Source: Hyphomicrobiales bacterium (GTDB lineage: Bacteria > Pseudomonadota > Alphaproteobacteria > Rhizobiales > Xanthobacteraceae). From it: a stretch of 64,000 nt of DNA. The notes beneath the pieces are model-generated. The model was not told where the DNA came from and ran no database searches. It saw only the letters and a list, made by a program, of their open reading frames with translations. Below, one piece after another: positions 10,563-49,269 of the stretch. Position numbers and translations under genes: made by a program. Position 1 is the first letter of the stretch. Each line of letters begins with the position of its first letter. Where the stretch lies: the NCBI GenBank assembly GCA_017305665.1, contig JAFKKH010000017.1, forward strand, positions 1 through 64,000, given 5' to 3'.

Positions 10563-10566
10563 CCAT

Positions 10567-10840: not shown

Positions 10841-10900
10841 CTTGTATTACTACGTCATGTCAGCCAGAAGCTCGCCGTATTCGAAGCGACGCGACGCCTT

Positions 10901-13357: not shown

Positions 13358-13390
13358 AGGGTCCCCTCCCGGTTTCGTACTCGTTAGATA

Positions 13391-13415
13391 AACGTACGTT
13401 CATCAATATGGTTCC
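13391..13415 (-). promoter_or_regulatory. EcfG-type (general stress sigma) promoter of otsA
   Basis: On the minus strand GGAAC (13415-13411), 16 bases, then CGTT (13394-13391) exactly matches the EcfG/RpoE2 consensus GGAAC-N16/17-CGTT of alphaproteobacteria. The -10 element is 34 bases from the otsA GTG, leaving a short leader containing the ribosome site. Trehalose synthesis is a known member of the general stress regulon in rhizobia. Confidence 0.8.
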
Positions 13416-13530
13416 TGGTCACCTTTCCAGCCAAAATGAAACCAAATTCGGGCAACGCGGGCATGGAACTCCGCAAGTTTCTGCAGAGACAATGTTGGTG
13501 ATTGAAATCACGACGTTTTTCGTGACGTAA

Positions 13531-33454: not shown

Positions 33455-33796
33455 GGGCATGCCTCCTTTTGTCTGCGCACTTGTCATCGCGCACTTGATC
33501 GGCCCGCAGCAAGCCACCCGCCTCCTCAAAGGTCAATCGGCTGTGCTGCGTCACGAGGACGACACGGATCGCGGCATACGCATTGATGATTGAAGCGGTG
33601 GCGCGCATTGAATAGTCTTGTGTGCGTCTCGGCCGATTGACCTTCAATCAATGCGGGCCGGTTTATGCACCAATCGATTTTGAAGTCCCGGCGACCTCTG
33701 TGATCTAGATCACAGTTAGGGCGGATAACCTGGCCCATCGTGCCCATGGTTGCCCGCATCGCGCGGCGAACCGAGAATTATAGGGAGATGATGATC
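33455..33796. other. Gap between the lactonase-like gene and ompA-1
   Basis: This 342-base gap separates divergent genes. It holds a perfect CRP-type palindrome at 33699-33714 (annotated separately) and the ribosome site TAGGGAG at 33781. No gene is seen in the rest. Confidence 0.6.
33699..33714. promoter_or_regulatory. Perfect CRP-type site upstream of ompA-1
   Basis: TGTGATCTAGATCACA is a perfect palindrome and identical to the ideal CRP core TGTGA-N6-TCACA. It ends 82 bases before the ompA-1 start, a typical activator distance. A CRP-family protein with the matching recognition residues is encoded at 41160-41834. Confidence 0.85.
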
Positions 33797-34432
33797 ATGC
33801 TGATTCAAACGATATCCGGAAAAGGCCTCAGAGCCGCCATCCTGGCGGCCGGTCTGGCCTTGATCGCAGTGCCGCACGGCGCATCGGCTGGAGATATTTC
33901 CGCGCAGCAAATCATCGACGGCCTGAAGGTTTCGAAGACACGAAGCCTGAGCGCACACGCGCAGCCCGCGATGAGCGCCGGTGATCTCGCTTTTGTGAAG
34001 AGCGTACGCGGCAAAACCCGTTCGCTGTCATCGGGCGATCGCGAGCAACTGGCGGCCATCGCCGCGAAGCGCCCGAGCATCGACCTCGACATCAATTTCG
34101 ATTTCAACTCGGCGGCCGTGACGCCGCGCGCCGAACCGCAACTCAACAACCTCGGGAAAGCGTTGACCAGCAACGAGCTCGCGGGCTCCCTGATCATGCT
34201 CGGCGGCCATACCGACGGCAAAGGATCCGACGCCTACAACCGCGAGCTCTCCGAACGCCGGGCAGCCGCGGTGAAGCACTACCTGATCGAGAAATTCCGC
34301 ATCCCCGCGGCGAACCTGGTGTCAACCGGCTATGGCAAAACGGGCTACAAGAATCCTTCAAACCCGTTCGCAGCGGAAAATCGTCGCGTCGAGGTCATCA
34401 ACATGGCCTCGAAGGATCAGGCCGCGAATTAA
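33797..34432 (+). CDS. OmpA-family peptidoglycan-associated protein 1
   Basis: A 211-residue exported protein with a signal peptide (AAILAAGLALIAVPHGASA/G) and a C-terminal OmpA domain: INFDFNSAAVTPRAEPQL, GGHTDGKGSDAYNRELSERRAAAVKHYL and ENRRVEVIN, including the Asp and Arg that grip peptidoglycan. Between them the pentapeptide TRSLS occurs twice (residues 48-52 and 74-78). Of three clustered ATGs, 33797 has the best distance from TAGGGAG. There is no beta-barrel and no lipobox, so it is probably periplasmic. Paralogous to the protein at 36308. Confidence 0.88.
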   Translation: MLIQTISGKGLRAAILAAGLALIAVPHGASAGDISAQQIIDGLKVSKTRSLSAHAQPAMSAGDLAFVKSVRGKTRSLSSGDREQLAAIAAKRPSIDLDINFDFNSAAVTPRAEPQLNNLGKALTSNELAGSLIMLGGHTDGKGSDAYNRELSERRAAAVKHYLIEKFRIPAANLVSTGYGKTGYKNPSNPFAAENRRVEVINMASKDQAAN

Positions 34433-34438
34433 CGATAT

Positions 34439-34470
34439 ACGCCGTGGAGTCCCTTGCGGCTTCACGGCGT
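34439..34470 (+). terminator. Hairpin after ompA-1
   Basis: ACGCCGTG (34439-34446) pairs with CACGGCGT (34463-34470), beginning seven bases after the stop. There is no T-run, so attenuation or mRNA protection is as likely as termination. Confidence 0.5.
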
Positions 34471-34652
34471 CCGCCTGAACGGCCGCGATCGCACACGATC
34501 GCAGCGCGAACGCGATCAATCGCCGCACCTCTTCAGGCGTTTACCACGCGATGACGGATACGATCCCGTCCGTTTGATAATGCGAATTGCGTAAGATAAG
34601 GTCGCCACGGCGCGGACTGCATTGGGCGCCTGATTTGTTGGACTGGCGTCGC

Positions 34653-36206: not shown

Positions 36207-36307
36207 GCTATTTTAGCGAGCCGGAGACGCGAACCTCCCGGCACTTTTTTACGACGAATATTTTCAGGCGTGCTCATAGGGCACGAATTTGCGCGGGAGA
36301 TACGGCA

Positions 36308-36955
36308 ATGCACAAATTGACCGGTAATTTCAAAACAGTTCGTTTTATTGCCATGGTCGGTGCGATGCTGTCGGTCACGACAGGATTTGCGATCGCGGGC
36401 GAGGTGGTAACCGAAGATCAGATCGTTCGGGCACTCAGTCCCAAGACGCCGCTGACCCGCGGCCTTTCGGTCGCGACGCCGGCCGATGAGACCGTTTCGA
36501 CCGCCCAGGGCAAATTCATCGACAGCTTGCGCAATCGTCCGACCCGCTCGTTGTCGGCGGGAGAGCGCGATCAGCTTGCCGAAATCACCGAGGCCAAACC
36601 GAACATCGATATGGAAATCACCTTCGACTACAATTCGGCGACCATCAGTGCGGAGGCACAGCCTGCGATTCAGGCGCTCGGCAAGGCGCTCTCCAACCCC
36701 AACTTCAAGGGCTCCACCTTTGTCGTTGCAGGTCATACTGATGCCGCGGGCGGCGAAGCTTACAATCAGGATCTGTCGGAGCGCCGCGCCGATTCCGTAA
36801 AGCGTTATCTGGTCGAGAAGTTCGGACTTGCCGGCGCCGATCTCGTAACCGTCGGATATGGCAAAAGCCGGCTCAAGGATGCAGCCCATCCGCTGGATGC
36901 GGCGAACCGCCGGGTTCAGGTTGTGAATATGGTGGACAAGACCGCGTCGAAGTGA
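36308..36955 (+). CDS. OmpA-family peptidoglycan-associated protein 2
   Basis: A 215-residue exported protein, paralogous to the one at 33797. It has a signal peptide (IAMVGAMLSVTTGFAIA/G), a middle part with TRGLS (50-54) and TRSLS (79-83), and an OmpA domain (ITFDYNSATISAEAQPAI, GHTDAAGGEAYNQDLSERRADSVKRYL, ANRRVQVVN) with intact peptidoglycan-binding residues. GGGAGA lies about seven bases before the ATG. It follows the caspase-fold gene and ends at a strong terminator, so 33.8-37 kb may be one unit with an internal hairpin. Confidence 0.88.
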   Translation: MHKLTGNFKTVRFIAMVGAMLSVTTGFAIAGEVVTEDQIVRALSPKTPLTRGLSVATPADETVSTAQGKFIDSLRNRPTRSLSAGERDQLAEITEAKPNIDMEITFDYNSATISAEAQPAIQALGKALSNPNFKGSTFVVAGHTDAAGGEAYNQDLSERRADSVKRYLVEKFGLAGADLVTVGYGKSRLKDAAHPLDAANRRVQVVNMVDKTASK

Positions 36956-36981
36956 ACCGGCGGAAAGCGACTTGAGCTGAC

Positions 36982-37017
36982 ACAGCGCTCCGCACGCCGC
37001 GGGACGCTGTTTGTTTT
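36982..37017 (+). terminator. Rho-independent terminator after ompA-2
   Basis: ACAGCG (36982-36987) pairs with CGCTGT (37005-37010), extended by TCC/GGGA inside, and is followed by TTGTTTT. It lies 26 bases after the ompA-2 stop and isolates the downstream efflux genes. Confidence 0.8.
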
Positions 37018-37092
37018 GCCGATTGCCGATGCACTGTGTAGATTGCCCTTTTGTGGACTATCGATGTGCCGGGCCAGTGAGAGAATTGCGAC

Positions 37093-38025
37093 GTGAGGGG
37101 ATTTTCTGATTTCGGATACAGGCTGCGTGGTACACGAGGGGTTGCCCCCGGACTGATCTGCGGTGTGCTGGCATCCGTCGCCGTCCTCGCCGGCCCCTCA
37201 TGGGCCGCCGAGGACAATGGCCAGCCCGGCGGCGCGCTGGTGACTGTCGCGCGCGCGACCAGCGCCTGCTTTTCCGACATGGTCCGCGTAACCGGCTTTG
37301 TCGTCCCGAGGCAGGAAGCGGTGGTCAGTCCGGACTCGGAAGGATCACGGGTGACCGACGTGCTCGTCCGCGAAGGCGACATGGTCACGCTCAATCAGGA
37401 CCTGGCGCGGCTGACGCCCTCGCCTACCAATCCCCGGGGGGGACCGATCGTCCTCCACGCGCCCGCGGCCGGGCTTGTCACACAGGTTCGCACCGCGGTC
37501 GGAGCGCCCGCCTCGCCGCAAGCCGGGCCGATGTTCCGGATTGCCGTCAACAATGAGATCGAACTGGACGCCGAAGTACCGTCGATCCACGTGCTGAAAC
37601 TCAATCCGGGCGCCACCGCACGCATCAGTCCGGAGAACGGGCCCGATCTGGTCGGCCGCGTCCGGCTGGTATCGCCCGACATCGATCGCAAAACCCAGAT
37701 GGGCCATGTCCGGCTGTCCCTGACCAGAAGCCCGACGCTCCGGATCGGAATGTTCGCCCGCGCCAATATCGACGCCAAGCGCAGTTGCGGCGTGTCCATT
37801 CCCCGCTCGGCGATCGACCATCTCACGGTTCAGGTGGTGGTCAACGGCGACACCGTGGAGACGCGGCACGTTCGCGTCGGACTGACCTCCGACACCGGGA
37901 TCGAAATTCTCGAAGGCCTGAAGGTCGGAGAAATCGTCGTTGCCGATGCCGGCACGTCGCTGCATGACGGCGACCGCGTCAAGACCCGGTTTCCGGATGA
38001 ACTCGATCGATCGCGAGCACGTTAA
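37093..38025 (+). CDS. RND periplasmic adaptor subunit (HlyD/AcrA type)
   Basis: A 310-residue membrane-fusion protein for the RND pump that follows. After a signal peptide (ICGVLASVAVLAGPSWA/A) it has the lipoyl half-motifs (VVSPDSEGSRVTDVLVREGDMV ... IVLHAPAAGLVTQV), a beta-barrel and the C-terminal part (GIEILEGLKVGEIVVADAG). It is short: there is no long coiled-coil hairpin between the lipoyl halves. Two cysteines, C59 and C232, align with a pair in the paralogue at 46842. The start is GTG at 37093. Its stop overlaps the pump start (TAATG). Confidence 0.87.
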   Translation: MRGFSDFGYRLRGTRGVAPGLICGVLASVAVLAGPSWAAEDNGQPGGALVTVARATSACFSDMVRVTGFVVPRQEAVVSPDSEGSRVTDVLVREGDMVTLNQDLARLTPSPTNPRGGPIVLHAPAAGLVTQVRTAVGAPASPQAGPMFRIAVNNEIELDAEVPSIHVLKLNPGATARISPENGPDLVGRVRLVSPDIDRKTQMGHVRLSLTRSPTLRIGMFARANIDAKRSCGVSIPRSAIDHLTVQVVVNGDTVETRHVRVGLTSDTGIEILEGLKVGEIVVADAGTSLHDGDRVKTRFPDELDRSRAR

Positions 38026-41000
38026 TGGCCCTCAACATTTCCGCCTGGTCGATCCGGCACCCACTTCCCTCCGTCGTCTTCTCGATCATTCTGCTGGTGC
38101 TCGGATGGGTCAGTTTCACCAAGCTCGCCATCACGCGGCTACCGAGCGCTGACATTCCTGTGATCTCGGTGGCCGTCTCGCAATTCGGCGCGGCGCCTGC
38201 CGAACTGGAGGCGCAAGTCACCAAGACCATCGAGGACGGCGTCTCCGGCGTCGAAGGCGTCCGGCATATTTCATCGTCGATTACCGACGGCCTGTCGGTC
38301 ACCACCATCCAGTTCAATCTCGAAACCAACACCGATCGCGCGCTGAACGACGTCAAGGACGCGGTGACCCGGGTTCGCGCCAACCTGCCGCAGAACGTCA
38401 ACGAACCGCTGATCCAGCGCGTCGACGTCATCGGCCTGCCGATCGTCACCTATGCCGCGATCTCGCCGGGCAAGACGCCTGAGCAACTGTCGTACTTCGT
38501 CGACGACGTGGTGAAGCGGGCGCTGCAGGGCGTGCGCGGCGTGGCGCAGGTCGAGCGTATCGGCGGTGTCGAGCGCGAAATCCTGGTCTCACTCGATCCC
38601 GACCGTCTGCGTGCGGCCGGCCTGACGGCAGTCGATGTCAGCCAGCGCCTGCGCGGCACCAATGTCGATGTCGCCGGCGGACGCGCGGAGATCGGCAAGA
38701 ACGACCAGGCAATCCGCACACTTGCAGGCGCCAAGACGCTCAACGAACTCGCGGGCACGATGATCGCGCTGCCAGCTGGTGGCGAATTGCGGCTCGACGA
38801 TCTCGGCACGGTGACCGATACGATCGCCGACCGCCGGACCTTTGCCCGCTTCAACGGTGAGCCGGTCGTCGCGCTCGGCATCAAGCGCTCCAAGGGCGCC
38901 AGCGACGTCGTGGTCGCCAAGGCCGTACAGAAGCGGATTGATGCGCTGAAAGAGCAATATCCCGACGTCGACCTGAAGCTGATCGACACCTCGGTCGATT
39001 TCACCAAGGGCAATTACGAGGCCGCGATCTCGACCCTGTTCGAAGGCGCGATTCTGGCCGTCATCATCGTCTTTCTGTTCCTGCGCGATATCCGCGCCAC
39101 CATCATCGCCGCGATCTCGCTGCCGCTATCGATCTTCCCGGCATTCTGGGCGATGGACATTCTCGGCTTCTCGCTGAACCTCGTCAGCTTCCTCGCCATC
39201 ACGCTTTCGACCGGTATTCTCGTCGACGACGCCATCGTCGAGATCGAGAACATCGTGCGCCACATGCGCATGGGCAAATCGCCCTATCGCGCGGCACTGG
39301 AAGCAGCCGACGAAATCGGTCTCGCCGTCATCGCGATCAGTCTGACCATCATCGCGATCTTCGCGCCGGCGAGCTTCATGTCGGGCATCGCCGGGCAGTT
39401 CTTCAAGCAGTTCGGCATCACCGTTTCGGTGCAGGTATTCTTCTCGCTCTTGGCCGCACGTTTCGTGACGCCGGTGCTTGCCGCCTATTTCATGAAGGAT
39501 CACCCGCATGAGGATCCACCGCCGGGTCGCGTGCTGCGGGCCTATACCAGTCTCGTTACCTGGTCAGTGCGGCATTACATCATCACGGTCCTGATCGGCT
39601 TCGCGATCTTCGCGGCCTCGATCTGGAGCATCAAGCTGCTGCCGCAGGGCTTCCTGCCTGCGCAGGACACCGCGCGCTCGCTGCTGGCGATGGAGTTGCC
39701 ACCGGGCTCGCAGCTCGCCTACACCGAGAAGGTGACCGAAGATATCGTGGCGCGGCTGCGCAAGCGGCCGGAAGTCAAGAGCGTGTTCGTCGACGGCGGA
39801 CGCGTGCCGCCCGGCCTTCAGGAGGTGCGCCGCGCCTCGCTGATCATCAACTATACGCCAAAGCACGACCGCGAAATCAGCCAGCGCGACCTCGAACTGT
39901 CGATCGGGCAGGAGCTCGAAAGCATTCCCGACATCCGCTACTGGTTCCTCGACGAGAACGGACTGCGCGCCGTGTCGCTCGTGGTTACGGGGCCCGACAT
40001 CAGCATCGTCAGCAACGTCGCGAGCGAACTGGCGACGCAGATGAAGCGGATTCCGCTGATTGCCAACGTCACGCCCGAGACCTCGCTTGATCGCCCCGAA
40101 TTGCGCATCCAGCCGCGTGCCGACCTCGCGGCGCGGCTCGGTGTCTCGACCGAGCAGTTGTCGCAGACCATCCGCGTCGCGACGATCGGCGACGTCGGCC
40201 CGGCGCTGGCCAAGTTCGATGCCGGCGACCGCCAGGTTCCGATCCGCGTTCAGCTCGAGGACAGCGCGCGGTCCGACCTGAAGATGCTGGAGCAGATGCG
40301 CGTGCCGATCGGCGGCGGGCGCGGTCAGGTTCCGCTCTCCGTGGTTGCCGACGTCAAGCTCGATCAGGGCCCGACCAGCATCAATCGCTACGACCGCCAG
40401 CGGCAGGCCACCGTCGCGGCCGACCTCGTCGGCACCGCCGCGCTTGGCGATGCGACCAAGAAGATCAACGAACTGCCGGTCATGAAGAGCCTGCCCAAGG
40501 GCGTGACGGTCAATCCGTCCGGCGACGCCGAGAGCCTGAACGAACTGTCGGAAGGATTCGCCACCGCGATCACGGCCGGCCTGATGATGGTCTACGCCGT
40601 GCTGGTGCTGTTGTTCGGCACCTTCCTGCAACCGATCACCATCCTGTTCTCACTGCCGCTGTCGATCGGCGGCGCGATCATGGCGCTGCTGCTCACCGGC
40701 AAACAACTCACGACGCCGGTCTGGATCGGCATCCTGATGCTGATGGGCATCGTCACCAAGAACGCCATCATGCTGGTGGAGTTTGCCGTGGAGTCGATCC
40801 GCGAGGGCAAGGCGCGCGACGCGGCGATCATCGACGCCGGCATGAAACGGGCACGCCCGATCGTGATGACCACCATCGCCATGGCCGCGGGCATGATGCC
40901 AAGCGCGCTGGCGTTCGGCGCCGGTGGCGAATTCCGCTCGCCGATGGCGCTCGCGGTGATCGGCGGCCTGGTGTTCTCGACGATCCTGTCGCTGGTGTTC

Positions 41001-41150
41001 GTCCCTGCGATGTTCATGCTGATGGATGACGTCGGCGCCTTCATCTGGCGCTACGGCAAGCGGCTGTTGACCTCGGGAGCGGACACAGACGAGCCGGCCG
41101 CCGCCAGCCATCAGCCGCCGAAAACCGCGCAGGTGCCCGGCGCCGAGTAA
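38025..41150 (+). CDS. RND efflux transporter (AcrB/MexB-like)
   Basis: A 1041-residue inner-membrane pump of the RND superfamily with twelve membrane helices and two large periplasmic loops. The proton-relay residues are present: the Asp pair in GILVDDAIVEIEN (TM4) and the Lys in GIVTKNAIMLVEF (TM10). PSADIPVISVAVSQFGAAPAELE is the usual opening. It is translationally coupled to the adaptor gene and ends nine bases before the convergent crp-family gene. No outer-membrane channel gene is seen, so it must use a TolC-like protein encoded elsewhere. Substrates cannot be told. Confidence 0.93.
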   Translation: MALNISAWSIRHPLPSVVFSIILLVLGWVSFTKLAITRLPSADIPVISVAVSQFGAAPAELEAQVTKTIEDGVSGVEGVRHISSSITDGLSVTTIQFNLETNTDRALNDVKDAVTRVRANLPQNVNEPLIQRVDVIGLPIVTYAAISPGKTPEQLSYFVDDVVKRALQGVRGVAQVERIGGVEREILVSLDPDRLRAAGLTAVDVSQRLRGTNVDVAGGRAEIGKNDQAIRTLAGAKTLNELAGTMIALPAGGELRLDDLGTVTDTIADRRTFARFNGEPVVALGIKRSKGASDVVVAKAVQKRIDALKEQYPDVDLKLIDTSVDFTKGNYEAAISTLFEGAILAVIIVFLFLRDIRATIIAAISLPLSIFPAFWAMDILGFSLNLVSFLAITLSTGILVDDAIVEIENIVRHMRMGKSPYRAALEAADEIGLAVIAISLTIIAIFAPASFMSGIAGQFFKQFGITVSVQVFFSLLAARFVTPVLAAYFMKDHPHEDPPPGRVLRAYTSLVTWSVRHYIITVLIGFAIFAASIWSIKLLPQGFLPAQDTARSLLAMELPPGSQLAYTEKVTEDIVARLRKRPEVKSVFVDGGRVPPGLQEVRRASLIINYTPKHDREISQRDLELSIGQELESIPDIRYWFLDENGLRAVSLVVTGPDISIVSNVASELATQMKRIPLIANVTPETSLDRPELRIQPRADLAARLGVSTEQLSQTIRVATIGDVGPALAKFDAGDRQVPIRVQLEDSARSDLKMLEQMRVPIGGGRGQVPLSVVADVKLDQGPTSINRYDRQRQATVAADLVGTAALGDATKKINELPVMKSLPKGVTVNPSGDAESLNELSEGFATAITAGLMMVYAVLVLLFGTFLQPITILFSLPLSIGGAIMALLLTGKQLTTPVWIGILMLMGIVTKNAIMLVEFAVESIREGKARDAAIIDAGMKRARPIVMTTIAMAAGMMPSALAFGAGGEFRSPMALAVIGGLVFSTILSLVFVPAMFMLMDDVGAFIWRYGKRLLTSGADTDEPAAASHQPPKTAQVPGAE

Positions 41151-41159
41151 GCGCCTACG

Positions 41160-41834
41160 TTACGCGTTGCGCGCCACTGCGGTCAGGCGGCTCATGTTCT
41201 TGAGCAGGATACGGCCGCGCTGGAGATCGAGAATACCGTCCTTGCGCCACTGCTGGAGCTGGCGGTTCACGCTCTCGCGCGCGGCGCCGACGTAAACGCC
41301 GAGCTGCTCCTGCGAGATGTGAACCTCCGACCCGTAGTCATCGGCCAGCGCGCACAGCCGGCGCGCCATCCGCACCGGCAGCGGCTGCAGCACCGATTCC
41401 TCCATGCGCTCGCTGATCCAGCGGATGCGCTGGCACAGCAGCTCGATCAACCGAATGGCGATCTTCGGCTCCCGTTCCAGAAACGCCAGCAAGTCGCCAC
41501 GGCGCAGAACGAACAGTTCGGTCGGCTCGCCCGCCACCGCATCGGCGGTGCGCGTCTGACCATCGAGCACGGCGATTTCACCGAACAGATCGCCTGACCC
41601 TTGAAAATTCAAGGTCAGCCGCGAACCGTCGGTGGCGCCGGTCTCGATGCGAATCTGGCCACGGCGAACGCCATACAGCGCATCACCATCATCGCCCTTC
41701 TGAAACAAGACCTCGCCGGCATCGAGCTGCTCGGTATGGCAAAGCGCCGCGATGCGCTGCAATTCCTCGGCACCGAGATCTGAAAACAGCGGGTTCATCT
41801 TGAGAATGACCGCGAATTCCGATTGCTTGCTCAT
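41160..41834 (-). CDS. CRP/FNR-family regulator of the CRP type
   Basis: A 224-residue regulator. The cyclic-nucleotide-binding domain has the phosphate cassette GDLFGEIAVLDGQTRTA with E86, R95 and T96, matching Glu72, Arg82 and Ser83 of E. coli CRP. The C-terminal helix-turn-helix reads ISQEQLGVYVGAARESVNRQL; R186, E187 and R191 match the CRP residues that read GTGA. No FNR-type cysteine cluster is present. AAGGAT precedes the ATG. It should therefore bind TGTGA-N6-TCACA sites in response to cAMP or cGMP; three such sites lie in this window, one before its own gene. Confidence 0.88.
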   Translation of the reverse strand: MSKQSEFAVILKMNPLFSDLGAEELQRIAALCHTEQLDAGEVLFQKGDDGDALYGVRRGQIRIETGATDGSRLTLNFQGSGDLFGEIAVLDGQTRTADAVAGEPTELFVLRRGDLLAFLEREPKIAIRLIELLCQRIRWISERMEESVLQPLPVRMARRLCALADDYGSEVHISQEQLGVYVGAARESVNRQLQQWRKDGILDLQRGRILLKNMSRLTAVARNA

Positions 41835-41975
41835 CGCAATTCATCCTTGAGGCCGACCGCACTGCCCGGAAGCCGGCAGGCGCTGGACTGAATAACAACC
41901 TGAAAATCAAACGATTTCGGAGACGCCCCAAGGGCGCCCCTGCGCTACAATATGCCCGATCATGCACCCGGAAAG

Positions 41976-41991
41976 TGTGTCATAAGTCACA
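41976..41991. promoter_or_regulatory. CRP-type site between crp and asmA
   Basis: TGTGTCATAAGTCACA matches TGTGA-N6-TCACA with one mismatch (fifth base). It lies 142 bases before the crp-family start and 117 bases before the asmA start, so it could serve autoregulation, asmA control or both. Confidence 0.65.
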
Positions 41992-42108
41992 GAGATTTGC
42001 ACCCCTGCAGACGACTTTGACACGACGTCTTCGTATTCCACTCTCGTGAGAATTGTCCTTCAATCGCCCAATGGTTGCGAGCCGAGACCCGTTGTTCGAG
42101 ATGGCCAG

Positions 42109-44031
42109 ATGAGAGCATTGAAAATCGCCGGCGCCGTTGTCTCCGGCCTGATCGCCATCGTGATCGTACTCCTGGTGACCGGAATTCCGTCCGGCTTCAT
42201 CACCTCACTGGTGCAGGACCGGATCGAGCGCGAGACCGGCTACCGGATCGCGATCGCCGGCAAGACCGCGATCGATGTGTGGCCGTCGTTCGGCCTGACG
42301 CTCCACAACGTCACGCTCGAAAGCCCCAAGGATGGCGCAACCGACCCGCATCTCTCCGTGGGAGAAGTCCGCGCCGACCTTCCATTGTCGAGCCTGCTGT
42401 CGGGCTCGCCGAAAGTCTCCGAACTCACCATCGACCACCCCACGCTGCGGCTACCGATGCTGCGCGAACGCACCCGCGTCAACGCGCCCTCCGGGACGAC
42501 CCACGCTGACGATGCGACTACGAATACCGCGGCCTTTCCGATCGGCAGCGTGACAATCTCCAACGGCGCGATCGTGTTCTTCGATCCGGATAATCGCCTG
42601 GAAGACCGAATCAACGATCTCGATGCAACGGTGACCATCGGTGCCGACCGGAAAATCGATATCGCCGGCAGCGCGCGTCCCGGCAATCAGCCCCTGAAAT
42701 TCACCATCAAAGCCGCTCCCCCAACCGGCGCGCCGGGACGGCAGAACATTCCGACGGAATTGACGCTCGACGCCCCCGGCGTACTGACGCACCAATTGAC
42801 CGCCAAAGCCGACGTCCGGATCAACGGTCAGGTGCTTCTCATCAACGGGCTGTCGGGCTCGCTCAACGACGGCAAATTCAACGGCTGGGCTTCGGTCGAT
42901 CTCGCGAGCAAGCCGCTGGTGAAAGTCGATCTCGATTTCCAGCAGCTCGGCTTTGGTCCGGCGTCCGGCTCGCCGGGGACCAGTCCTGCGACGCGATCGG
43001 GGACACAGCCATGGAGCGATGTGCCGTTCGATCTCAACGGACTGAACTACGTCGATGCACAGGTCACAATCTCAGCCGCCGAATTGAGGTTCGGCGACGC
43101 ACGCTTTGCCCCTGCATCGGCGAGTGCAACGATCGCAAACGGCGTCTTGCAGACGACGTTTTCCCGCCTGGGCACCTATGATGGCGAAGCCAACGGTACG
43201 CTGTCGGTCGATGTGTCCAAAGGCAGCCCCTCTTACGCATTGAAAGCCGACGTCACCGGCGTGCGCGCGTTGCCGCTGCTGTCGAGCCTTGCGGATTTCG
43301 ACACGGTAGACGGCAAAATGCAGGCGAAGGCCGATGTGCAGGCCACAGGCAACAGTCTGCGCGCGATCATGTCGAGCGTGGCCGGAACGGCATCGGTCGA
43401 TGTCCGCGATGGTGCGCTCCGCAATCTCAACCTCGCGAAAATGATCCGCGCGCTGACGTCGGGCACCCTGTCGGGATGGCAGGAGCGTCCCGACCAGACC
43501 ACCGATCTGTCGCAACTCAGCGCAACCGCAACCATCGCGCAGGGCAAGGCCACCACCAGCGACCTCTTTCTGGCCGGTCCTCTGGTGCGGATGACCGGCG
43601 CGGGCACGGTCGATCTCGGGTCGAAGATGCTCGCGTTCCGGGTCGAACCGAAGCTCGTCATGACGACCGAGGGCCAAGGCGGCAGCGCCGACCCGATCGG
43701 CCTCGGCATTCCCGTCATCGTGCAGGGGACGTGGAGCGAGCCGCGCATCTATCCGGATATGGCCGGCATCCTCGACAATCCCGGCGCGGCCTATGCGAAA
43801 CTGCGGGAGTTGGGACAGGGACTGTTCGGCCAGAGCGGCCCGGGAAGCTCCGGCAAGTCCGGTCTCGGCGAAACCCTCGACAACCTGATCCAGCAAGGTC
43901 TGGGCGGAGGAAATGCCGGCAAGCCAGCTCCCGGCGGCTCGCCCGCTCCGGGCCAGCCTTCTCAGGGCCAATCTCCTCAAGGCGGGGCATCTCCCCTTGA
44001 TGACATCATGAAGCGGCTGTTTGGCCGATAA
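42109..44031 (+). CDS. AsmA-family envelope protein
   Basis: A 640-residue protein with one N-terminal membrane helix (IAGAVVSGLIAIVIVLLVTGIP) and a long periplasmic beta-rich body. Family marks are RETGYRIAIAGKTAIDVWPSFGLTLHNVTLE at the start and VDVRDGALRNLNLAKMIRAL ... GAGTVDLGSKMLAFRVEPKLV at the C-terminal AsmA domain. A Gly/Pro/Gln-rich tail follows. AsmA-like proteins bridge the periplasm and help move phospholipid or organise the outer membrane. The ATG at 42109 places the membrane helix at the N-terminus; a GTG at 42046 is open in frame but unsupported. Confidence 0.88.
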   Translation: MRALKIAGAVVSGLIAIVIVLLVTGIPSGFITSLVQDRIERETGYRIAIAGKTAIDVWPSFGLTLHNVTLESPKDGATDPHLSVGEVRADLPLSSLLSGSPKVSELTIDHPTLRLPMLRERTRVNAPSGTTHADDATTNTAAFPIGSVTISNGAIVFFDPDNRLEDRINDLDATVTIGADRKIDIAGSARPGNQPLKFTIKAAPPTGAPGRQNIPTELTLDAPGVLTHQLTAKADVRINGQVLLINGLSGSLNDGKFNGWASVDLASKPLVKVDLDFQQLGFGPASGSPGTSPATRSGTQPWSDVPFDLNGLNYVDAQVTISAAELRFGDARFAPASASATIANGVLQTTFSRLGTYDGEANGTLSVDVSKGSPSYALKADVTGVRALPLLSSLADFDTVDGKMQAKADVQATGNSLRAIMSSVAGTASVDVRDGALRNLNLAKMIRALTSGTLSGWQERPDQTTDLSQLSATATIAQGKATTSDLFLAGPLVRMTGAGTVDLGSKMLAFRVEPKLVMTTEGQGGSADPIGLGIPVIVQGTWSEPRIYPDMAGILDNPGAAYAKLRELGQGLFGQSGPGSSGKSGLGETLDNLIQQGLGGGNAGKPAPGGSPAPGQPSQGQSPQGGASPLDDIMKRLFGR

Positions 44032-44186
44032 AATCCAGCCAATGCTCCAATAACCACGCTGGCAGACCGCCCGCGCCACCGGTCGAATTGTGCTAGACAT
44101 GACCGTGTGAGGCGGACCGCCCGACATGGCGACGACCTCGGCTGTTTGGCCGCCCGATCGGGCGCTATTGCAGTGCAGGGAAATCG

Positions 44187-46652
44187 ATGAACGGAGCCAC
44201 GACCAGCAGCCGATCCCGTCACCGAGGCCTGTTCGCCAAATACGTCATCTCGCTCGTCGGTCTGGTAGTGTTCGTCCTCGCGGTCAATGGCGCCCTCGAG
44301 ATCTGGATCAGCTACAACCAGACCAAGACGGCGCTGATCCATGCGATGTCCGAGAAAGCCGACACGACCGCGCACCGGGTCGAGCAGTCGATCACGGATC
44401 TGGAGCGTCAGGTCAGTTGGGTGACACGCGCCAGCGTGGTCACCGTCGAACAGCGCCGCGCCGATTACGCCGAATTGTTGAATCAGGTCCCGGCCGTCAA
44501 CCAGATCTTCCAGCTCGACGGGCTGGGCCACGAACAACTCCGGTTGTCGCGCCACTCGGTATCGTTCGGCAGCGGAACCGATTTCTCCCGCGATTTGCGA
44601 TTCACGGAAACCGTGAGCAAAGGCGTCACCTACGCTCCGGTTTTTTTCCGCGACCAGCAGCCCTTCATGTCGATCGCTGTCGCTCATTCCGGACGGGATG
44701 CGGGCGCGTCCGTCGCGGAAATCAATCTTCATTTTCTGTCGGAGTATGTCGACGATGCGCAGGTCGGCAAGGTCGGCACGGCCTATGTGGTGGATGCGCA
44801 TGGCATCCTGCTCGCAAGCTCCGACAAGAAAGCGCAGCCCGGCAAGAACCTGTCAACGCTGCCGCAGATCGCAGCCCTGCTGAAGCCCGGCAACGAGTCC
44901 CCAAAGTCAGGTACGAATGCTGAAGGCCAGTCGGTGCTGACCGCCGCGAAGCCGGTTCACAAGCTCGGCTGGTTCGTACTGTTCGAACAGCCGACGCGTC
45001 AGGCGCTCGCGCCGATCCACGACCTCTTGATCCGCATCGCCGTTCTGGTCGCGTTCGGTCTCGCCGTCGCAATCCTCGCCGGCATGCTGCTGGCGCGACG
45101 CATGCTGGTTCCGATCCAGGCGCTCAACACCGGCGCGCAGCGTCTCGGCGACGGCGACTTCGGGCACCGGATCGAAGTCAGAACCAAAGATGAGCTCGAG
45201 CAACTCGCCGATCAGTTCAACAGCATGGCCGGCCAGCTTCACGAAACCTACGCCGACCTCGAGCACAAGGTGGAAGAGCGCACGCGCGACCTCGCCCAAT
45301 CAGTGAACGAACTCAAGGTGCTCGAGGAAGTCGGCCGCGCCGTCGCCTCGTCACTCGATCTCAACGCCGTGCTCCCGACCGTCGCCGCCCGCGCGCTGGA
45401 AATCACCAAGGCCGATGCCGTGCTTATCTATGGCTTCGATGCGGCGAAGCGGCAGTTCAATCTCGTCGAGGCCAGCGGCGTGGGGAAAGCAGCGAGCGGC
45501 AAGCACCTCGTGATCAGCGGGGACAGCAGCCTGCTGAGCCAGGCCGCTGCGAGCGGCCAGCCGATTGCGATAGCCGACCTCGCAACCGCAGAGGCGAATC
45601 CGTTGAACGATGCCGCAACCGCGGCTGGCTTCCATTCCGTTCTGGTCGTGCCGCTGATCGACCAGCAAGGCATTCTGGGCTCCCTAATCGTGCTACGGCG
45701 AACGGCGGGGCCGTTCTCGCCGAATCTCATCGGCTTGATGCAGACGTTCGCTCATCAGGCGGTGCTGGCGATGCGCAACGCCCGGCTGTTTCATGAGGTC
45801 GATCAAAAGGGCCGCGAGCTCGCAACGGCGCATGGCATCGTCCAGCAGCAGGCCGGCAAGCTTCAAGAGCAAACCGATCAGTTGCGCGACTGGAACAGGT
45901 CGCTCGAAGAGCGGGTGCAGAAGCAGCTCGGCGAAATCGAGCGCATTCGCCGGCTCGAACGGTTTCTCGCCCCGCAAGTCGCGCAGCTCGTCGCATCGTC
46001 CGACGGGAAGAACTCGCTGCTCGACAGCCATCGCGGCGAAGTCACGGTCGTGTTCTGCGATCTGCGCGGCTTTACCGCGTTCACGGAAAGCTCCGAGCCG
46101 GAAGAGGCCATGAACGTGCTGCGCGAATATCACGCGGCGCTTGGCGAACTGATCTTCAAGTATGAAGGCACGCTGGACCGCTACGCCGGCGACGGCGTGA
46201 TGATCCTGTTCAACGCCCCAATCCCTGTGCCGGATCACACTCAACGTGCCATCAGGATGGCAGTCGAAATGCGCGACAGCATCGGACTGTTGTCGCAGAA
46301 ATGGCGCAGTCGCGGTCACAGCCTCGGCTTCAGTGTCGGAATCGCCGTCGGCTACGCAACGCTCGGCCAGGTCGGCTTCGAGCGTCGCCTCGAATATGCG
46401 GCGATCGGCAGCGTGACCAACCTCGCCTCGCGGCTATGCGACGAAGCCAAGGCAGGCCAGATCGTGGTCAATCAGCGCGCCTATGGCATGGTGGAGCAGT
46501 GGGTCGATGCGACACCGCTGGAGCCACTGGTACTGAAAGGCTTCCATCATCCGGTTGCCGCCGTCGAAATCCACCGTTGGCGCGATCAGACCACTGATGG
46601 GGTCGCGCCGCCGGTGCGCTCGGCCGCCGCAGGCGGAAGCAGGTCCGCATGA
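44187..46652 (+). CDS. Class III adenylate/guanylate cyclase with Cache, HAMP and GAF domains
   Basis: An 821-residue membrane-bound signalling enzyme. A first membrane helix (residues 18-41) and a second near 278-303 enclose a Cache-type periplasmic sensor; then come HAMP (RRMLVPIQALNTGAQRLGDGDFGHRI), a GAF domain (about 385-525), a coiled coil and the cyclase domain. The metal-binding residues D625 (FCDLRGFT) and D669 (DRYAGDGVM) and the transition-state Asn/Arg in SVTNLASRL are intact. A substrate-specifying Lys is not obvious, so ATP versus GTP is open; ATP is usual for this type. A cyclic-nucleotide-binding regulator is encoded 2.4 kb away. Confidence 0.92.
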   Translation: MNGATTSSRSRHRGLFAKYVISLVGLVVFVLAVNGALEIWISYNQTKTALIHAMSEKADTTAHRVEQSITDLERQVSWVTRASVVTVEQRRADYAELLNQVPAVNQIFQLDGLGHEQLRLSRHSVSFGSGTDFSRDLRFTETVSKGVTYAPVFFRDQQPFMSIAVAHSGRDAGASVAEINLHFLSEYVDDAQVGKVGTAYVVDAHGILLASSDKKAQPGKNLSTLPQIAALLKPGNESPKSGTNAEGQSVLTAAKPVHKLGWFVLFEQPTRQALAPIHDLLIRIAVLVAFGLAVAILAGMLLARRMLVPIQALNTGAQRLGDGDFGHRIEVRTKDELEQLADQFNSMAGQLHETYADLEHKVEERTRDLAQSVNELKVLEEVGRAVASSLDLNAVLPTVAARALEITKADAVLIYGFDAAKRQFNLVEASGVGKAASGKHLVISGDSSLLSQAAASGQPIAIADLATAEANPLNDAATAAGFHSVLVVPLIDQQGILGSLIVLRRTAGPFSPNLIGLMQTFAHQAVLAMRNARLFHEVDQKGRELATAHGIVQQQAGKLQEQTDQLRDWNRSLEERVQKQLGEIERIRRLERFLAPQVAQLVASSDGKNSLLDSHRGEVTVVFCDLRGFTAFTESSEPEEAMNVLREYHAALGELIFKYEGTLDRYAGDGVMILFNAPIPVPDHTQRAIRMAVEMRDSIGLLSQKWRSRGHSLGFSVGIAVGYATLGQVGFERRLEYAAIGSVTNLASRLCDEAKAGQIVVNQRAYGMVEQWVDATPLEPLVLKGFHHPVAAVEIHRWRDQTTDGVAPPVRSAAAGGSRSA

Positions 46653-46710
46653 ACAGGCGCCTGACATGGATCGCTTGCGGCCGCCTCTTGGCTGGCGAGC
46701 TCGGCTTGAC

Positions 46711-46734
46711 TAGTGTCCCGAATCCGACGTTCGC
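46711..46734. repeat. Remnant of an AGTGTCC-type palindromic repeat
   Basis: TAGTGTCCCGAATCCGACG resembles the left arm of the inverted repeat at 52907 (TAGTGGTCC..GATTCTAAC). No matching right arm is seen, so this looks like a half copy in the gap between the cyclase and adaptor 2. Confidence 0.45.
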
Positions 46735-46841
46735 CTCGTTGTGCAGTCGAACTTCTGAACCACACACACCAAGCTCGCAGTCCGTTGATTCCCGAACAAA
46801 CCATCGCAGTGACATCACGATTTTTCTGAAAGTATCTTTCA

Positions 46842-47744
46842 ATGCCTTTTGAATGTCTTGGTACACGCCTCATCACACGACAGACGATCGCAATCGCTGC
46901 TCTTCTCAGCATGACCGCCCTCACTCGTCCTGTTTTCGCGGCCGGCGAGCAGGACACTCCGAAAGGTGCCGCCGTCACGGTGTTGAAAGCAGCCAAATCG
47001 TGCTTTTCGGCAACGGTCGAGGTGGCAGGAATCCTGATTCCAAAAGAGGAGACGGCGGTGCGCCCGGACCGCCCGGGTCTGAAAGTTGCCGAGGTGCTGG
47101 CGGAGCCCGGGCAGACCGTCACAGCAGGACAGGAACTGGCGCGTCTCAAAGCTTCCGATGGCGGAACGGTCCAGGTTCAAGCGCCCGTGGCCGGACTGGT
47201 CAGCAGTTCGACAGCCACAATCGGAGCAATTGCCTCAGGCAAGGGCGAGGCGCTGTTCAACATCATCACCGGCAACGAGTTCGATCTGGTCGGCCAGGTC
47301 GCAACGAGCGATCTGTCGAAAATCGCTGTCAATCAAACCGCCAAGGTCAAGGTCGTCGGTGCTGGCGAGATGGACGGAAAGGTGCGGCTCGTTGCGCCAA
47401 CGATCGAACCGAACAGCCAGCTTGGGCAGGTCTTCATATCCGTCGACCCGAGCAAACACCTGCTCGTCAATGCGTCCGGCCGCGCCATCATCAAGACCGG
47501 CGAAAGCTGCGGCATCGCCGTGCCGCTAACGGCAGTTCTTTATGGGACCGCCGGCACCGTGGTGCAGGTCATTCGGCGCCAGCGGGTCGAAACTCGCCAC
47601 GTCGAGGTGGGATTGCTGTCCGGCGGACAGGTTGAAATTCGCGAGGGATTGTCGGAAGGCGATATCGTGGTAGCGCGCGCCGGCGCCTTGCTGCGTGAAG
47701 GCGATCCGGTCAGACCGGTCCCGATGGATGCGAGCGCGAAGTAA
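46842..47744 (+). CDS. Orphan RND-type periplasmic adaptor, paralogue of 37093
   Basis: A 300-residue exported protein related over its length to the adaptor at 37093. It has a signal peptide (QTIAIAALLSMTALTRPVFA/A), lipoyl halves (PDRPGLKVAEVLAEPGQTVTAG and VQVQAPVAGLVSS), a barrel, and the end part QVEIREGLSEGDIVVARAGALL. C54 and C223 match C59 and C232 of the paralogue. No pump gene accompanies it: the next gene is convergent. It may share the upstream pump, alter its specificity, or have another partner. Ribosome site is weak (AAAG). Confidence 0.82.
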   Translation: MPFECLGTRLITRQTIAIAALLSMTALTRPVFAAGEQDTPKGAAVTVLKAAKSCFSATVEVAGILIPKEETAVRPDRPGLKVAEVLAEPGQTVTAGQELARLKASDGGTVQVQAPVAGLVSSSTATIGAIASGKGEALFNIITGNEFDLVGQVATSDLSKIAVNQTAKVKVVGAGEMDGKVRLVAPTIEPNSQLGQVFISVDPSKHLLVNASGRAIIKTGESCGIAVPLTAVLYGTAGTVVQVIRRQRVETRHVEVGLLSGGQVEIREGLSEGDIVVARAGALLREGDPVRPVPMDASAK

Positions 47745-47749
47745 AACTC

Positions 47750-48628
47750 TTAGCTGCCGGCCTTGCGCGAGGCGATCGCGGCGTCGGCCTTGAGCGGCAC
47801 ATCCTCAGCCAGCGACGACGATACCGTCGGCACTTGCTCGCCATCGGTCGCACGCGACACCGCAACGCGGGTCTTGCTGAACACGGCCTCAGCGCCCGCG
47901 TTCGGTGTGTCCAGACTCTTGAGCAGTTCGGCCATCAGCAGGCTGTATTGGCCGCCGGCATCATCGACAACCTGTCCAGGCGTTGCCGACGACAGGATCA
48001 GCGCGTTATCCGGCACGTTGATCGGTGCAAGACCATGGGAGTATGCGCGGAAGCGACGCTCATACGGATTGCGCCGCGAGGCATCGATCACCGCGAGCTT
48101 GACCTTGGCGCCACGCTCCTTCATCGCACCGAGCACGGATTCGACGGACAGCCCGTCGTGCCGCACATCGATTTCCTTCCAGATCTGCGCATCGACCGGG
48201 ATCATGTAGCTCTCGCGACCGGACTGAATACCGAACCCGCTGAAGAACAGCATGGCGGTTGTTTCCGGACCGATCTTCGATTTCAGACGGCTGACTGCGC
48301 GGTGCATGTCGTCCTTGTTGGCATCCTCGATCATGATGACGTCGAAACCATCGCGGCGCAGGATCGTCGTCAGTGCGCGGGCATCATTGATCGATTGCTT
48401 CAGCGGGCGGTTGGCATCCGGATAATGTCCGTTGCCGATCACCAGCGCGACCCGCGACGGCTTGATGGTCACGCTGCCGGTTGTATCGGCAACCGCGAGG
48501 GCCTTCGCGACATCCAGGCTTCGCTTGTTGAGCGCGGCATGGGCTCCAATCGCCAGCGACACCATCCCGACAAGGACGGCGGCCAACGTGACCGATCGAG
48601 GGGAAACGCGAAACTGCCCTAGCTTCAT
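47750..48628 (-). CDS. Second caspase-fold protein without catalytic dyad
   Basis: A 292-residue protein with an N-terminal hydrophobic segment (SVTLAAVLVGMVSLAIGAHA/A) acting as signal peptide or anchor, then a caspase fold closely similar to the one at 34653 (RVALVIGNGHYP, PLKQSINDARALTTIL, IPVDAQIWKEIDVRHDG). The His position is Phe132 (FFSGFGIQ) and the Cys position Ser184 (VIDASRRNP), 52 residues apart as in the paralogue. It has no linker or TPR domain. The ATG at 48628 is chosen for the export signal. It converges on the orphan adaptor with five bases between the stops. Confidence 0.86.
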   Translation of the reverse strand: MKLGQFRVSPRSVTLAAVLVGMVSLAIGAHAALNKRSLDVAKALAVADTTGSVTIKPSRVALVIGNGHYPDANRPLKQSINDARALTTILRRDGFDVIMIEDANKDDMHRAVSRLKSKIGPETTAMLFFSGFGIQSGRESYMIPVDAQIWKEIDVRHDGLSVESVLGAMKERGAKVKLAVIDASRRNPYERRFRAYSHGLAPINVPDNALILSSATPGQVVDDAGGQYSLLMAELLKSLDTPNAGAEAVFSKTRVAVSRATDGEQVPTVSSSLAEDVPLKADAAIASRKAGS

Positions 48629-49269
48629 AACGGTCAAGTCCTGGTCGTGCTCGATGACGTTCTTAGGTCGCGCCACCGCCAAATTGGTTTTAGGGAGTGC
48701 CAGACGTATTGCGGTCAAATGCGCTGGTTTTGCGGCACCGCAGCATGCGAAAGGTCATACCCTGCGAGACCCACATGAGCAACACGAAACCTTTATTTAT
48801 TGGAAACACCATGGCTTAAGCATACTGCGCCGACCGAGCGTGGACATGTCATTTTCTCAAGTGAATACAACTAATTAGATCAATCCCACTGCTGATCTGT
48901 TGCAAGTCTGAAAGAACATGTGTCGGATACGAGGGGGAGCAAATGCTCCGCTTGGAACGCATGGCTCTCGAGGACCCTAGTGGTGCCAAATTGACGCCTC
49001 TGCCAGCAGACCGGCTCATTCCCCAGCTCCACCCTGGCTCTGTTTGTAAGTCTGTAATCAGCGGTGCCGTCCGAGTATGGTGGGGCACTCGCGAAATCTC
49101 AGGCTGCGATGTGCTTGGATGGTCAGGCTATCGCTACCTCACCGCTCATCGCCGTGACTTAAGTCACATTTGTCTTTCCTGCTGATCCGTATAATTTTTT
49201 CAATAGCTTGGGCCGGACAGGCCTTGATGCGGTTTGCCAACGCGCACGGGGGCGCGCGAAAAGGAAATC
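48629..49269. other. Long gap upstream of two divergent genes
   Basis: This 641-base region lies between the second caspase-fold gene and the DxDTT-motif gene. It contains a CRP-type palindrome at 49153-49168. A frame at 48943-49185 has a good GGGGGAG ribosome site, but its 80-residue product shows no recognisable family and was not accepted as a gene. The AT-rich part 48780-48890 probably holds promoter sequence. Confidence 0.5.
49153..49168. promoter_or_regulatory. CRP-type site upstream of the DxDTT protein
   Basis: CGTGACTTAAGTCACA contains the perfect 14-base palindrome GTGACTTAAGTCAC and fits TGTGA-N6-TCACA except for the first base. It is 101 bases before the ATG at 49270. The right half (TAAGTCACA) is the same as in the site at 41976. 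Confidence 0.7.

What the first reader, a model, noticed from the sequence alone, without database searches (positions are those of the whole stretch)
33699..49168. Local cyclic-nucleotide circuit: CRP-type regulator, cyclase and three CRP boxes in 16 kb
A perfect TGTGATCTAGATCACA lies before ompA-1; near-perfect sites lie between crp and asmA (TGTGTCATAAGTCACA) and before the DxDTT protein (CGTGACTTAAGTCACA). The CRP-family protein at 41160 keeps E86/R95/T96 of the ligand pocket and R186/E187/R191 of the CRP recognition helix. A membrane-bound class III cyclase with intact metal residues is encoded in the same cluster. The sensor of the cyclase faces the periplasm, as do most of the candidate targets.
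Basis: partly seen in the sequence, partly recalled or inferred. Interest (0 to 1): 0.78.

Follow-up and report, generated by a model that had tools for sequence, protein, structure and literature searches.

The report
Cyclase-CRP circuit commanding caspase-like genes
A membrane cyclic-nucleotide enzyme and a CRP-type switch sit side by side in a Nitrobacter-like bacterium, and the switch's likely DNA address is conserved in front of the enzyme's own operon and of several genes for caspase-like and cell-envelope proteins, which suggests that a cyclic nucleotide turns on a set of bacterial caspase relatives.

Summary
In detail: three TGTGA-N6-TCACA boxes lie at 33699, 41976 and 49153, beside a CRP-type regulator and a class III cyclase. 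In the window alone three such boxes are unremarkable (1.2 expected; 8 of 100 shuffles reach 3). Comparison decides it. In 81 loci (window included) the box stands between crp and asmA in 75/81, before ompA1/casp1 in 37/51 and before the DxDTT gene in 25/27; TGTGA ranks first of 1024 five-base palindromes each time. The crp-asmA box sits at a class II (-41.5) distance from a conserved -10 of the asmA-cyclase operon, and is kept in 20/20 genomes with the cyclase next to it but 1/7 where it moved or is missing. For seven remote crp homologues 11 of 17 exact genomic boxes lie in the stretch fetched around crp; five others show none. New: boxes also front caspase-family genes, linked and unlinked (3 of 11 exact boxes here; 4 of 15 in G195). 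Closest known are CgrA of Rhodospirillum centenum (same box) and Clr. Binding, ligand and function are untested.

The parts
33699..33714 (.). CRP-type box TGTGATCTAGATCACA before the ompA1-casp1-ompA2-mfp1-rnd gene run
   Evidence: box in 37 of 51 upstream regions, window included (27 exact), first of 1024 palindromes
33740..34432 (+). ompA1: OmpA-family periplasmic/outer-membrane protein
   Evidence: PF00691
34587..36206 (+). casp1: apparently secreted caspase-family (C14) protein with TPR repeats; catalytic His and Cys replaced (FFSGYG, DASR)
   Evidence: PF00656 and TPR; N-terminal hydrophobic stretch; motifs
36308..36955 (+). ompA2: OmpA-family protein
   Evidence: PF00691
37093..38025 (+). 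mfp1: HlyD-type periplasmic adaptor
38025..41150 (+). RND efflux permease
   Evidence: NF033617, 710 bits, below its curated cut-off of 1250
41160..41834 (-). CRP-type regulator (cNMP-binding domain and Crp HTH)
   Evidence: PF00027, PF13545; nearest solved relative S. meliloti Clr 7PZA; residues
41976..41991 (.). CRP-type box between crp and the asmA-cyclase operon
   Evidence: 75 of 81 loci, window included; class II distance from a conserved -10 in the asmA direction
42046..44031 (+). AsmA-family protein, first gene of the apparent cyclase operon
   Evidence: PF05170; gap to the cyclase 155 bp
44187..46652 (+). membrane-bound class III nucleotidyl cyclase: TM, dCache-like sensor, TM, HAMP, GAF, cyclase domain
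46842..47744 (+). mfp2: RND-type periplasmic adaptor
   Evidence: TIGR01730 above cut-off, PF13437
47750..48718 (-). casp2: caspase-family protein with replaced catalytic residues (FFSGFG, DASR)
   Evidence: PF00656
49153..49168 (.). CRP-type box between casp2 and the DxDTT gene
   Evidence: 25 of 27 upstream regions, window included
49190..49195 (+). TATAAT, candidate -10 of the DxDTT gene; puts the box centre at about -41.5
   Evidence: distance is arithmetic, start site inferred
49270..51012 (+). DxDTT protein, likely class II terpene cyclase-like (start taken at ATG 49270; the ORF list opens it at TTG 49234)
   Evidence: no Pfam or NCBIfam match at the cut-offs used; low-confidence model, Foldseek best matches drimenol synthases and a squalene-hopene cyclase

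Best explanation
A self-feeding cyclic-nucleotide relay for the cell envelope. A periplasmic signal (unknown) acts on the dCache-like sensor of the cyclase; the cyclase makes a 3',5'-cyclic nucleotide, most likely cAMP, perhaps cGMP (inferred); this loads the neighbouring CRP-type protein (inferred from its pocket); the loaded dimer binds TGTGA-N6-TCACA boxes (inferred from the recognition helix and from comparative pairing) and activates as a class II activator at least the asmA-cyclase operon, closing a positive loop, and the DxDTT gene. It also drives the ompA1-casp1-ompA2-adaptor-RND gene run, and outside the cluster some caspase-family genes and a few other apparently exported proteins. 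Shown here: the boxes, their conservation and spacing, the residues, the co-occurrence of regulator, cyclase and box, and the boxes before caspase genes. Inferred: ligand, binding, direction of regulation, physiological role (envelope remodelling or secretion).
For: Box at the three orthologous places in 75/81, 37/51 and 25/27 regions (window included), first of 1024 palindromes each time; of 29 permuted half-sites the best reach 8, 4 and 1, the median 0; thinned sets agree. Class II spacing to a conserved -10 in the asmA-cyclase direction, 71 distinct sequences, z 3.9 among offsets; TATAAT at the class II distance before the DxDTT gene of the window. Box kept in 20/20 genomes with the cyclase 2.3-4.3 kb from crp on the far side of the box, in 1/7 otherwise. 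crp and cyclase orthologues: 24 both, 3 crp only, 0 cyclase only, of 149 genomes. Of 9 cNMP-domain proteins found in the genome only this one shows the R-E-x-x-x-R recognition helix (read by eye). Two genomes of the same genus with no crp or cyclase match at the cut-offs used have 0 exact boxes genome-wide and none before their DxDTT gene. Remote crp homologues (all seven of 42-56%): 11 of the 17 exact boxes of their genomes lie in the 14-20 kb fetched around crp, 6 of 7 in G054 (binomial 2e-14). Caspase genes: 13 of 34 family matches in four genomes have a box within 550 bp of the domain start; in a larger, partly selected set 22 of 59, again first of 1024.
Against: No binding or expression data. 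Five homologues of about 60% identity (genus g126) keep the recognition helix but show 0 boxes in the 11-20 kb fetched around crp, although their genomes hold 27 exact boxes. Among the five genomes of the window's genus with crp only this one has the crp-asmA box within one mismatch, and only two keep the DxDTT box; exact counts in the other four are 0, 1, 1 and 4. In genus g140 none of 6 DxDTT genes has the box, with or without crp. In the DxDTT direction the class II offset is only the second-best for a -10 across relatives; the best is a shorter one. The grouping 'cyclase moved' was made after the boxes were seen; by presence of the cyclase alone the box is in 20 of 24 with it and 1 of 3 without. 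G389 has no cyclase orthologue yet a one-mismatch box upstream of crp. Bradyrhizobium-like genomes carry a second CRP paralogue (36-38%) that could share the box. Several genera without a close crp still have 5-10 exact boxes. CAP residue T127 is replaced by I, Q or M at position 140 in 81/81, so the ligand is open. In the window itself the -10 for asmA is weak. The casp2 start is about 434 bp from its box. Nine cyclase matches share the cell. Relatives are not independent.
Confidence: 0.72

Rival explanations
1. The boxes belong to a CRP-type regulator that answers to the whole cell's cyclic nucleotide pool; the neighbouring cyclase is just one of several targets, not the dedicated signal source.
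For: Nine class III cyclase matches in the genome; 10 of the 11 exact boxes lie outside the cluster; boxes before unlinked caspase, L,D-transpeptidase, FKBP and other genes.
Against: The cyclase orthologue was not found without crp in 149 genomes, and the crp-asmA box follows the position of this cyclase; exact boxes cluster around remote crp homologues.
Confidence: 0.4
2. The cyclase makes cGMP and the regulator is a cGMP receptor, as in the R. centenum CgrA system; or the regulator takes either nucleotide, as Clr does.
For: Alanine at a substrate-specifying position in 66/66, as in the guanylate cyclase XC_0250 (PMC3770947, passages); CgrA protects the same box (PMC4681086, passages); T127 of CAP not kept.
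Against: The other specifying position is R or K (51/16), K also in the CyaB chain, whereas the 2w01 chain has E there (that 2w01 is the guanylyl cyclase Cya2 and that CyaB is adenylyl-specific is recalled); transition-state N and R are intact here but replaced in XC_0250; S141, R95 and T96 kept.
Confidence: 0.3
3. The boxes serve another regulator, and the crp gene is a bystander.
For: Genera without a close crp still have boxes; Bradyrhizobium-like genomes have a second paralogue; g126 homologues have no box nearby.
Against: In this genome no other cNMP-domain protein with such a recognition helix was found; boxes concentrate near seven remote crp homologues; two genomes of the genus without crp have no exact box.
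Confidence: 0.1
4. Chance: CRP-like words that happen to lie near a CRP gene.
For: Three boxes in the window are reached by 8 of 100 shuffles.
Against: Conservation at orthologous places against all 1024 palindromes and after thinning.
Confidence: 0.02

Closest known systems
CgrA locus (RC1_3785-gcyB-gcyC-cgrA) of Rhodospirillum centenum (PMC4681086, passages)
   Same: CRP-family protein; a 16-bp TGTGA-N6-TCACA palindrome footprinted upstream of its own operon; wider regulon.
   Different: cGMP and cyst development there; here a dCache-HAMP-GAF cyclase in an apparent operon with asmA, and caspase-family, OmpA and RND targets. Sequences of CgrA and its cyclase (GcyA, name recalled) were not compared here.
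Clr of Sinorhizobium meliloti (7PZA; PMC10127613, passages)
   Same: Nearest solved relative (104 bits), same numbering of the pocket (E86, R95, S/T96), many targets with signal peptides. Two of the three boxes (41976, 49153) also fit the Clr core motif GTNNCNNNNGNNAC.
   Different: The ompA1 box does not fit that motif; recognition helix GASRPKVNR in Clr against GAARESVNR here; Clr has T140/T141, here I140/S141.
E. coli CRP/CAP
   Same: Box, R-E-x-x-x-R recognition helix, E/R/(S,T) pocket, class II spacing (E. coli facts recalled).
   Different: Low similarity (about 50 bits), T127 position not kept, targets not catabolic.
Prokaryotic caspase homologues ('metacaspases'; PMC3501461, passages)
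   Same: Alphaproteobacterial abundance, Tyr/Ser the commonest replacements of the catalytic pair, OmpA in metacaspase operons.
   Different: The word cyclase does not occur in that main text; a CRP-type box before these genes is not mentioned in the passages seen.

Membership tests
CRP-type cyclic nucleotide receptor (Crp-Fnr superfamily) | cNMP-binding domain plus Crp-type HTH | tested here: met
   PF00027 77 bits, PF13545 59 bits, PF00325 22 bits, all above cut-off
CRP-type cyclic nucleotide receptor (Crp-Fnr superfamily) | phosphate/ribose pocket E, R, S/T | tested here: met
   E86 and R95 81/81, T96 80/81 and S 1/81
CRP-type cyclic nucleotide receptor (Crp-Fnr superfamily) | base-contacting T127/S128 (E. 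coli numbering) | tested here: inconclusive
   S141 81/81, but position 140 is I, Q or M; T in some remote homologues
CRP-type cyclic nucleotide receptor (Crp-Fnr superfamily) | recognition helix R-E-x-x-x-R for TGTGA | tested here: met
   81/81, also in 18 of 18 further homologues aligned; the link of these residues to TGTGA is recalled
CRP-type cyclic nucleotide receptor (Crp-Fnr superfamily) | binds cAMP and its DNA box | not testable with these tools
   needs protein
NCBIfam CRP equivalog (NF008732) | score above curated cut-off 266 | tested here: not met
   60.4 bits: a CRP-type protein, not filed as the enterobacterial CRP
Class III nucleotidyl cyclase | two metal aspartates, transition-state N and R | tested here: met
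   D625, D669 67/67; N745, R749 66/66; PF00211 70 bits
Class III nucleotidyl cyclase | substrate: adenylyl (K and D/T) or guanylyl (E and C/G) | tested here: inconclusive
   R/K at 665, A at 738
CgrA-type cyclase-CRP locus | cyclase linked to CRP gene with a box in the locus | tested here: met
CgrA-type cyclase-CRP locus | cGMP as ligand | not testable with these tools
   no assay
CgrA-type cyclase-CRP locus | orthology of the regulator to CgrA | not tested
   CgrA sequence not fetched
Clr of S. meliloti | Clr recognition residues and motif | tested here: inconclusive
   helix ARESVNR against SRPKVNR; two of three boxes fit GTNNCNNNNGNNAC, the ompA1 box does not (motif, compared by eye)
Caspase family C14 (casp1, casp2) | C14 fold match | tested here: met
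   122 and 124 bits
Caspase family C14 (casp1, casp2) | catalytic His-Cys pair | tested here: not met
   GYG/GFG and DASR; the unlinked C7 and C19 proteins keep GHG and DACR

The most novel reading that the evidence does not exclude
A cyclic nucleotide, through one dedicated CRP-type activator, commands a regulon of exported caspase-family proteins in Nitrobacter, Bradyrhizobium and relatives: pseudo-caspases in the control locus and catalytically intact caspases elsewhere, with the cyclase under its own activator (a possible bistable switch). Remote homologues in other families (G054, G251) also have a caspase gene beside crp, so cyclic nucleotide control of bacterial caspase relatives may be old and widespread in the order.
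Probability: 0.4. Interest if true: 0.78.

Novelty: new variant of a known kind. Interest (0 to 1): 0.62.

Why it matters
Caspase relatives are abundant in rhizobia and their kin (PMC3501461, passages) and, as far as I know, largely without known triggers. If a cyclic nucleotide and a CRP-type activator switch them on, this gives a definite handle (delete cyclase or crp, look at caspase transcripts) and a defined set of targets. It would also describe a Crp-type regulon with its own cyclase in Bradyrhizobium-type bacteria, for which my searches (open-access papers only) showed no report.

Tried and rejected
Counting boxes in the window alone: not significant. Genome-wide exact-box counts as a proxy for crp presence: only suggestive, since other genomes of the genus with crp have 0-4 and several genera without close crp have 5-10. 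A crp promoter read from the same box: the best -10 offset in the crp direction has z 2.2 only, so autoregulation of crp itself is left open. In the ompA1/casp1 direction the best offset is again the class II one (z 3.6) but weak in absolute terms (2.0 of 6 matches on average), and box-to-start distances vary from 16 to 326 bp. In the DxDTT direction the class II offset comes second (z 2.9 after 3.4). A fold for the DxDTT protein: model poor (mean pLDDT 62), Foldseek matches only suggestive. Classing loci by 'cyclase next to asmA' gives the box in 62 of 63 so classed and in 5 of 7 classed 'cyclase elsewhere'; in at least L032, L036, L043 and L060 the best alignment segment covers only part of the cyclase, so I put little weight on that second class and rely. 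The loci overlap in part (the contig lengths of L021 and G407, and of L023 and G395, agree), so these sets are not independent.
Full report
What is there. The three boxes stand at 33699-33714, 41976-41991 and 49153-49168. Around them run, on the plus strand, ompA1, casp1, ompA2, mfp1 and an RND permease with gaps of at most 154 bp; then crp on the minus strand; then asmA, the cyclase and mfp2 (gaps 155 and 189 bp); then casp2 on the minus strand and the DxDTT gene on the plus strand. The nearest crp genes by sequence are from Nitrobacter (94%). The genome has 5.03 Mb in 47 contigs.

Is it more than chance? In the window alone, no: three or more sites with at most one mismatch occur in 8 of 100 shuffles. 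In the genome, 11 exact sites stand against 0 for the reversed pattern and about 2.3 expected from composition. From the ORF lists I judge by eye that 8 of these 11 lie between genes; the other three I could not place.

Conservation. One scan of named genomes gave 80 loci with a relative of crp at 82-94% identity (195 confirmed, the best 80 kept). Gene order is largely kept (part of its output was cut). For 81 loci (80 and the window) I took up to 300 bp upstream of crp; where present, up to 450 bp upstream of ompA1 or casp1 (51) and 350 bp upstream of the DxDTT gene (27). A box with at most one mismatch is in 75, 37 and 25 of them; exact boxes in 0, 27 and 5. Among all 1024 palindromes of the same form TGTGA ranks first each time, the runners-up reaching 61 (its near-copy TGTGT), 30 and 15; of the 29 permuted half-sites the best reach 8, 4 and 1 and the median is 0. 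After thinning at 90% crp identity the counts are 30/35, 16/24 and 11/12. The 16-mers vary at the second and third places (32 distinct among 37, 23 among 25), while at crp-asmA TGTGACTTATGACACA dominates (35 of 75). The misses are 6, 14 and 2; the six at crp are the five loci nearest the window (L021-L025) and L089.

Geometry. In the asmA-cyclase direction the loci share a TATTTT-like hexamer that puts the box centre at about -41.5 (71 distinct sequences, z 3.9). In the window the DxDTT gene has TATAAT at 49190-49195, which puts its box at the same distance; across relatives the class II offset is second-best there, and it is the best but weak in the ompA1/casp1 direction. This is the class II position of E. 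coli CRP (recalled knowledge). The -10 of asmA in the window itself is weak.

Regulator, cyclase and box go together. Of 149 genomes of the family, 27 have crp at 76% or more; 24 of these have the cyclase orthologue at 64% or more (three of them, G354, G403 and G423, in two aligned pieces with about residues 379-543 missing); none has the cyclase alone. I dropped seven genomes whose best cyclase match is 43-53% identical and ends near residue 550. The box upstream of crp is within one mismatch in 20 of 20 genomes in which the cyclase lies 2.3-4.3 kb from crp across the box (distances; asmA between them was seen in those I fetched), and in 1 of 7 in which it has moved (G407, G395, G345, G381) or was not found (G421, G350, G389; the exception is G389) (2e-5 without correction for kinship). 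The 'moved' group was formed after the boxes were seen; by presence alone the figures are 20 of 24 and 1 of 3. In the named loci 62 of 63 classed as having the cyclase directly behind asmA have the box. Two genomes of the window's genus, G314 and G365, show no crp or cyclase at the cut-offs used but keep DxDTT, casp2, mfp2 and asmA; they have no exact box genome-wide and none before DxDTT, where G365 still shows a left half CCGTGACTT. But of the five genomes of that genus with crp, three also lack the DxDTT box, and in genus g140 none of 6 DxDTT genes has it.

Remote homologues. Around all seven crp homologues of 42-56% identity found I fetched 14-20 kb each. Their genomes hold 17 exact boxes in all; 11 lie in these stretches: G054 6 of 7, G251 2 of 2, G158 1 of 1, G197 1 of 1, G223 1 of 3, G150 0 of 2, G247 0 of 1. 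A class III cyclase lies near crp in G150, G158, G197, G247 and G054 (PF00211 just above cut-off), and a caspase-domain protein with a peptidoglycan-binding domain in G054 and G251. Against this, five genomes of genus g126 with crp at 59-61% show no box in the stretch fetched around crp, though they hold 27 exact boxes; four of the five have a cyclase there.

The regulator. Of 9 cNMP-domain proteins found in the genome, the other HTH-bearing ones have helices of the type TVSR or SVSR (by eye), and L020 shows no HTH that I can see. This rests on an E-value cut and could miss a very divergent member. The pocket residues follow Clr numbering (E86, R95, S96, T140, T141 in PMC10127613, passages); here they are E86, R95, T96, I140, S141. 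So a cyclic nucleotide ligand is likely and its base is not fixed.

The cyclase. Metal and transition-state residues are intact; the two specifying positions are R or K and A. The CyaB chain (3r5g) has K and T; the 2w01 chain has E and G. XC_0250, a guanylyl cyclase, has A at a specifying position but has lost the transition-state N and R (PMC3770947, passages). I lean to cAMP.

Caspases. The genome has 6 caspase-family matches. Exact boxes stand before ompA1-casp1 (33699), 64 bp upstream of an unlinked caspase on C7 with intact GHG and DACR, and 25 bp upstream of a gene for a small, apparently exported protein that opens an apparent three-gene run ending in another intact caspase on C19. Without selection, in four genomes scanned by family, 13 of 34 matches have a box within one mismatch in 550 bp before the domain: 1 of 6 here (the operon-borne ones fall outside the 550 bp), 2 of 4 in G407, 5 of 13 in G195, 5 of 11 in G176. 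In G195, a single-contig genome, 4 of the 15 exact boxes stand before caspase genes, two of them in the home cluster (0.015 expected if the 13 matches are 12 genes). In a larger set, 30 of whose 64 loci were picked by similarity to the C7 protein, 22 of 59 distinct upstream regions have a box (5 of the 22 in home clusters), first of 1024 palindromes, with runners-up at 18 and 17. So most caspase genes examined, 37 of 59, have none. Other exact boxes in this genome stand before an L,D-transpeptidase, an FKBP-type isomerase and a gene of a short protein that looks exported.

Literature. CgrA of R. centenum protects TGTGA-N6-TCACA upstream of its own RC1_3785-gcyB-gcyC-cgrA operon (PMC4681086, passages), so an autoregulated cyclase-linked CRP locus with this box is known; a review mentions Bradyrhizobium CRP sequences grouped with actinobacterial ones (PMC5449483, passages). 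Alphaproteobacterial caspase homologues with Tyr and Ser replacements and OmpA in metacaspase operons are known (PMC3501461, passages). I found no paper joining caspase homologues and a CRP regulon: Bradyrhizobium with caspase-like and adenylate cyclase 0 papers; metacaspase with adenylate cyclase and cAMP receptor protein 1, a cyanobacterial UV-A review seen in the listing only; listings showed none by title. The library is open-access only.

Verdict. It is a variant of a known kind; the part that I find new is its reach to caspase-family genes.

Noticed in passing
window 49270-51012: DxDTT protein without Pfam or NCBIfam match; PDCDTTAC invariant in the 16 sequences aligned; low-confidence model matches drimenol synthases and a squalene-hopene cyclase, suggesting a class II terpene cyclase family.
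   Followed up: partly
L176 (G054) 6519-17075: Around a remote crp homologue: ABC transporter and HlyD adaptor each behind an exact box, a caspase with peptidoglycan-binding domain, a Tll0287-HAMP sensor, a Ser/Thr kinase and a class III cyclase.
   Followed up: partly
G354, G403, G423 cyclase orthologues: Aligned in two pieces lacking about residues 379-543, i.e. the GAF domain appears deleted.
   Followed up: no
window 32651-33529: Metallo-beta-lactamase-fold protein resembling AHL lactonases but far below their cut-offs, divergent from ompA1 across the first box.
   Followed up: no
L131 (G365): DxDTT gene of a genome of the same genus without crp is reported with one in-frame TAA.
   Followed up: no
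L217 (own C19) 1743-5104: Exact box before an apparent operon of a small exported-looking protein, a membrane protein and an intact caspase; the first two have no Pfam match.
   Followed up: partly
genera g145, g132, g137: Several genomes with 5-10 exact TGTGA-N6-TCACA sites that are not among the 59 genomes with a crp match, so another CRP-type protein probably uses the box there.
   Followed up: no
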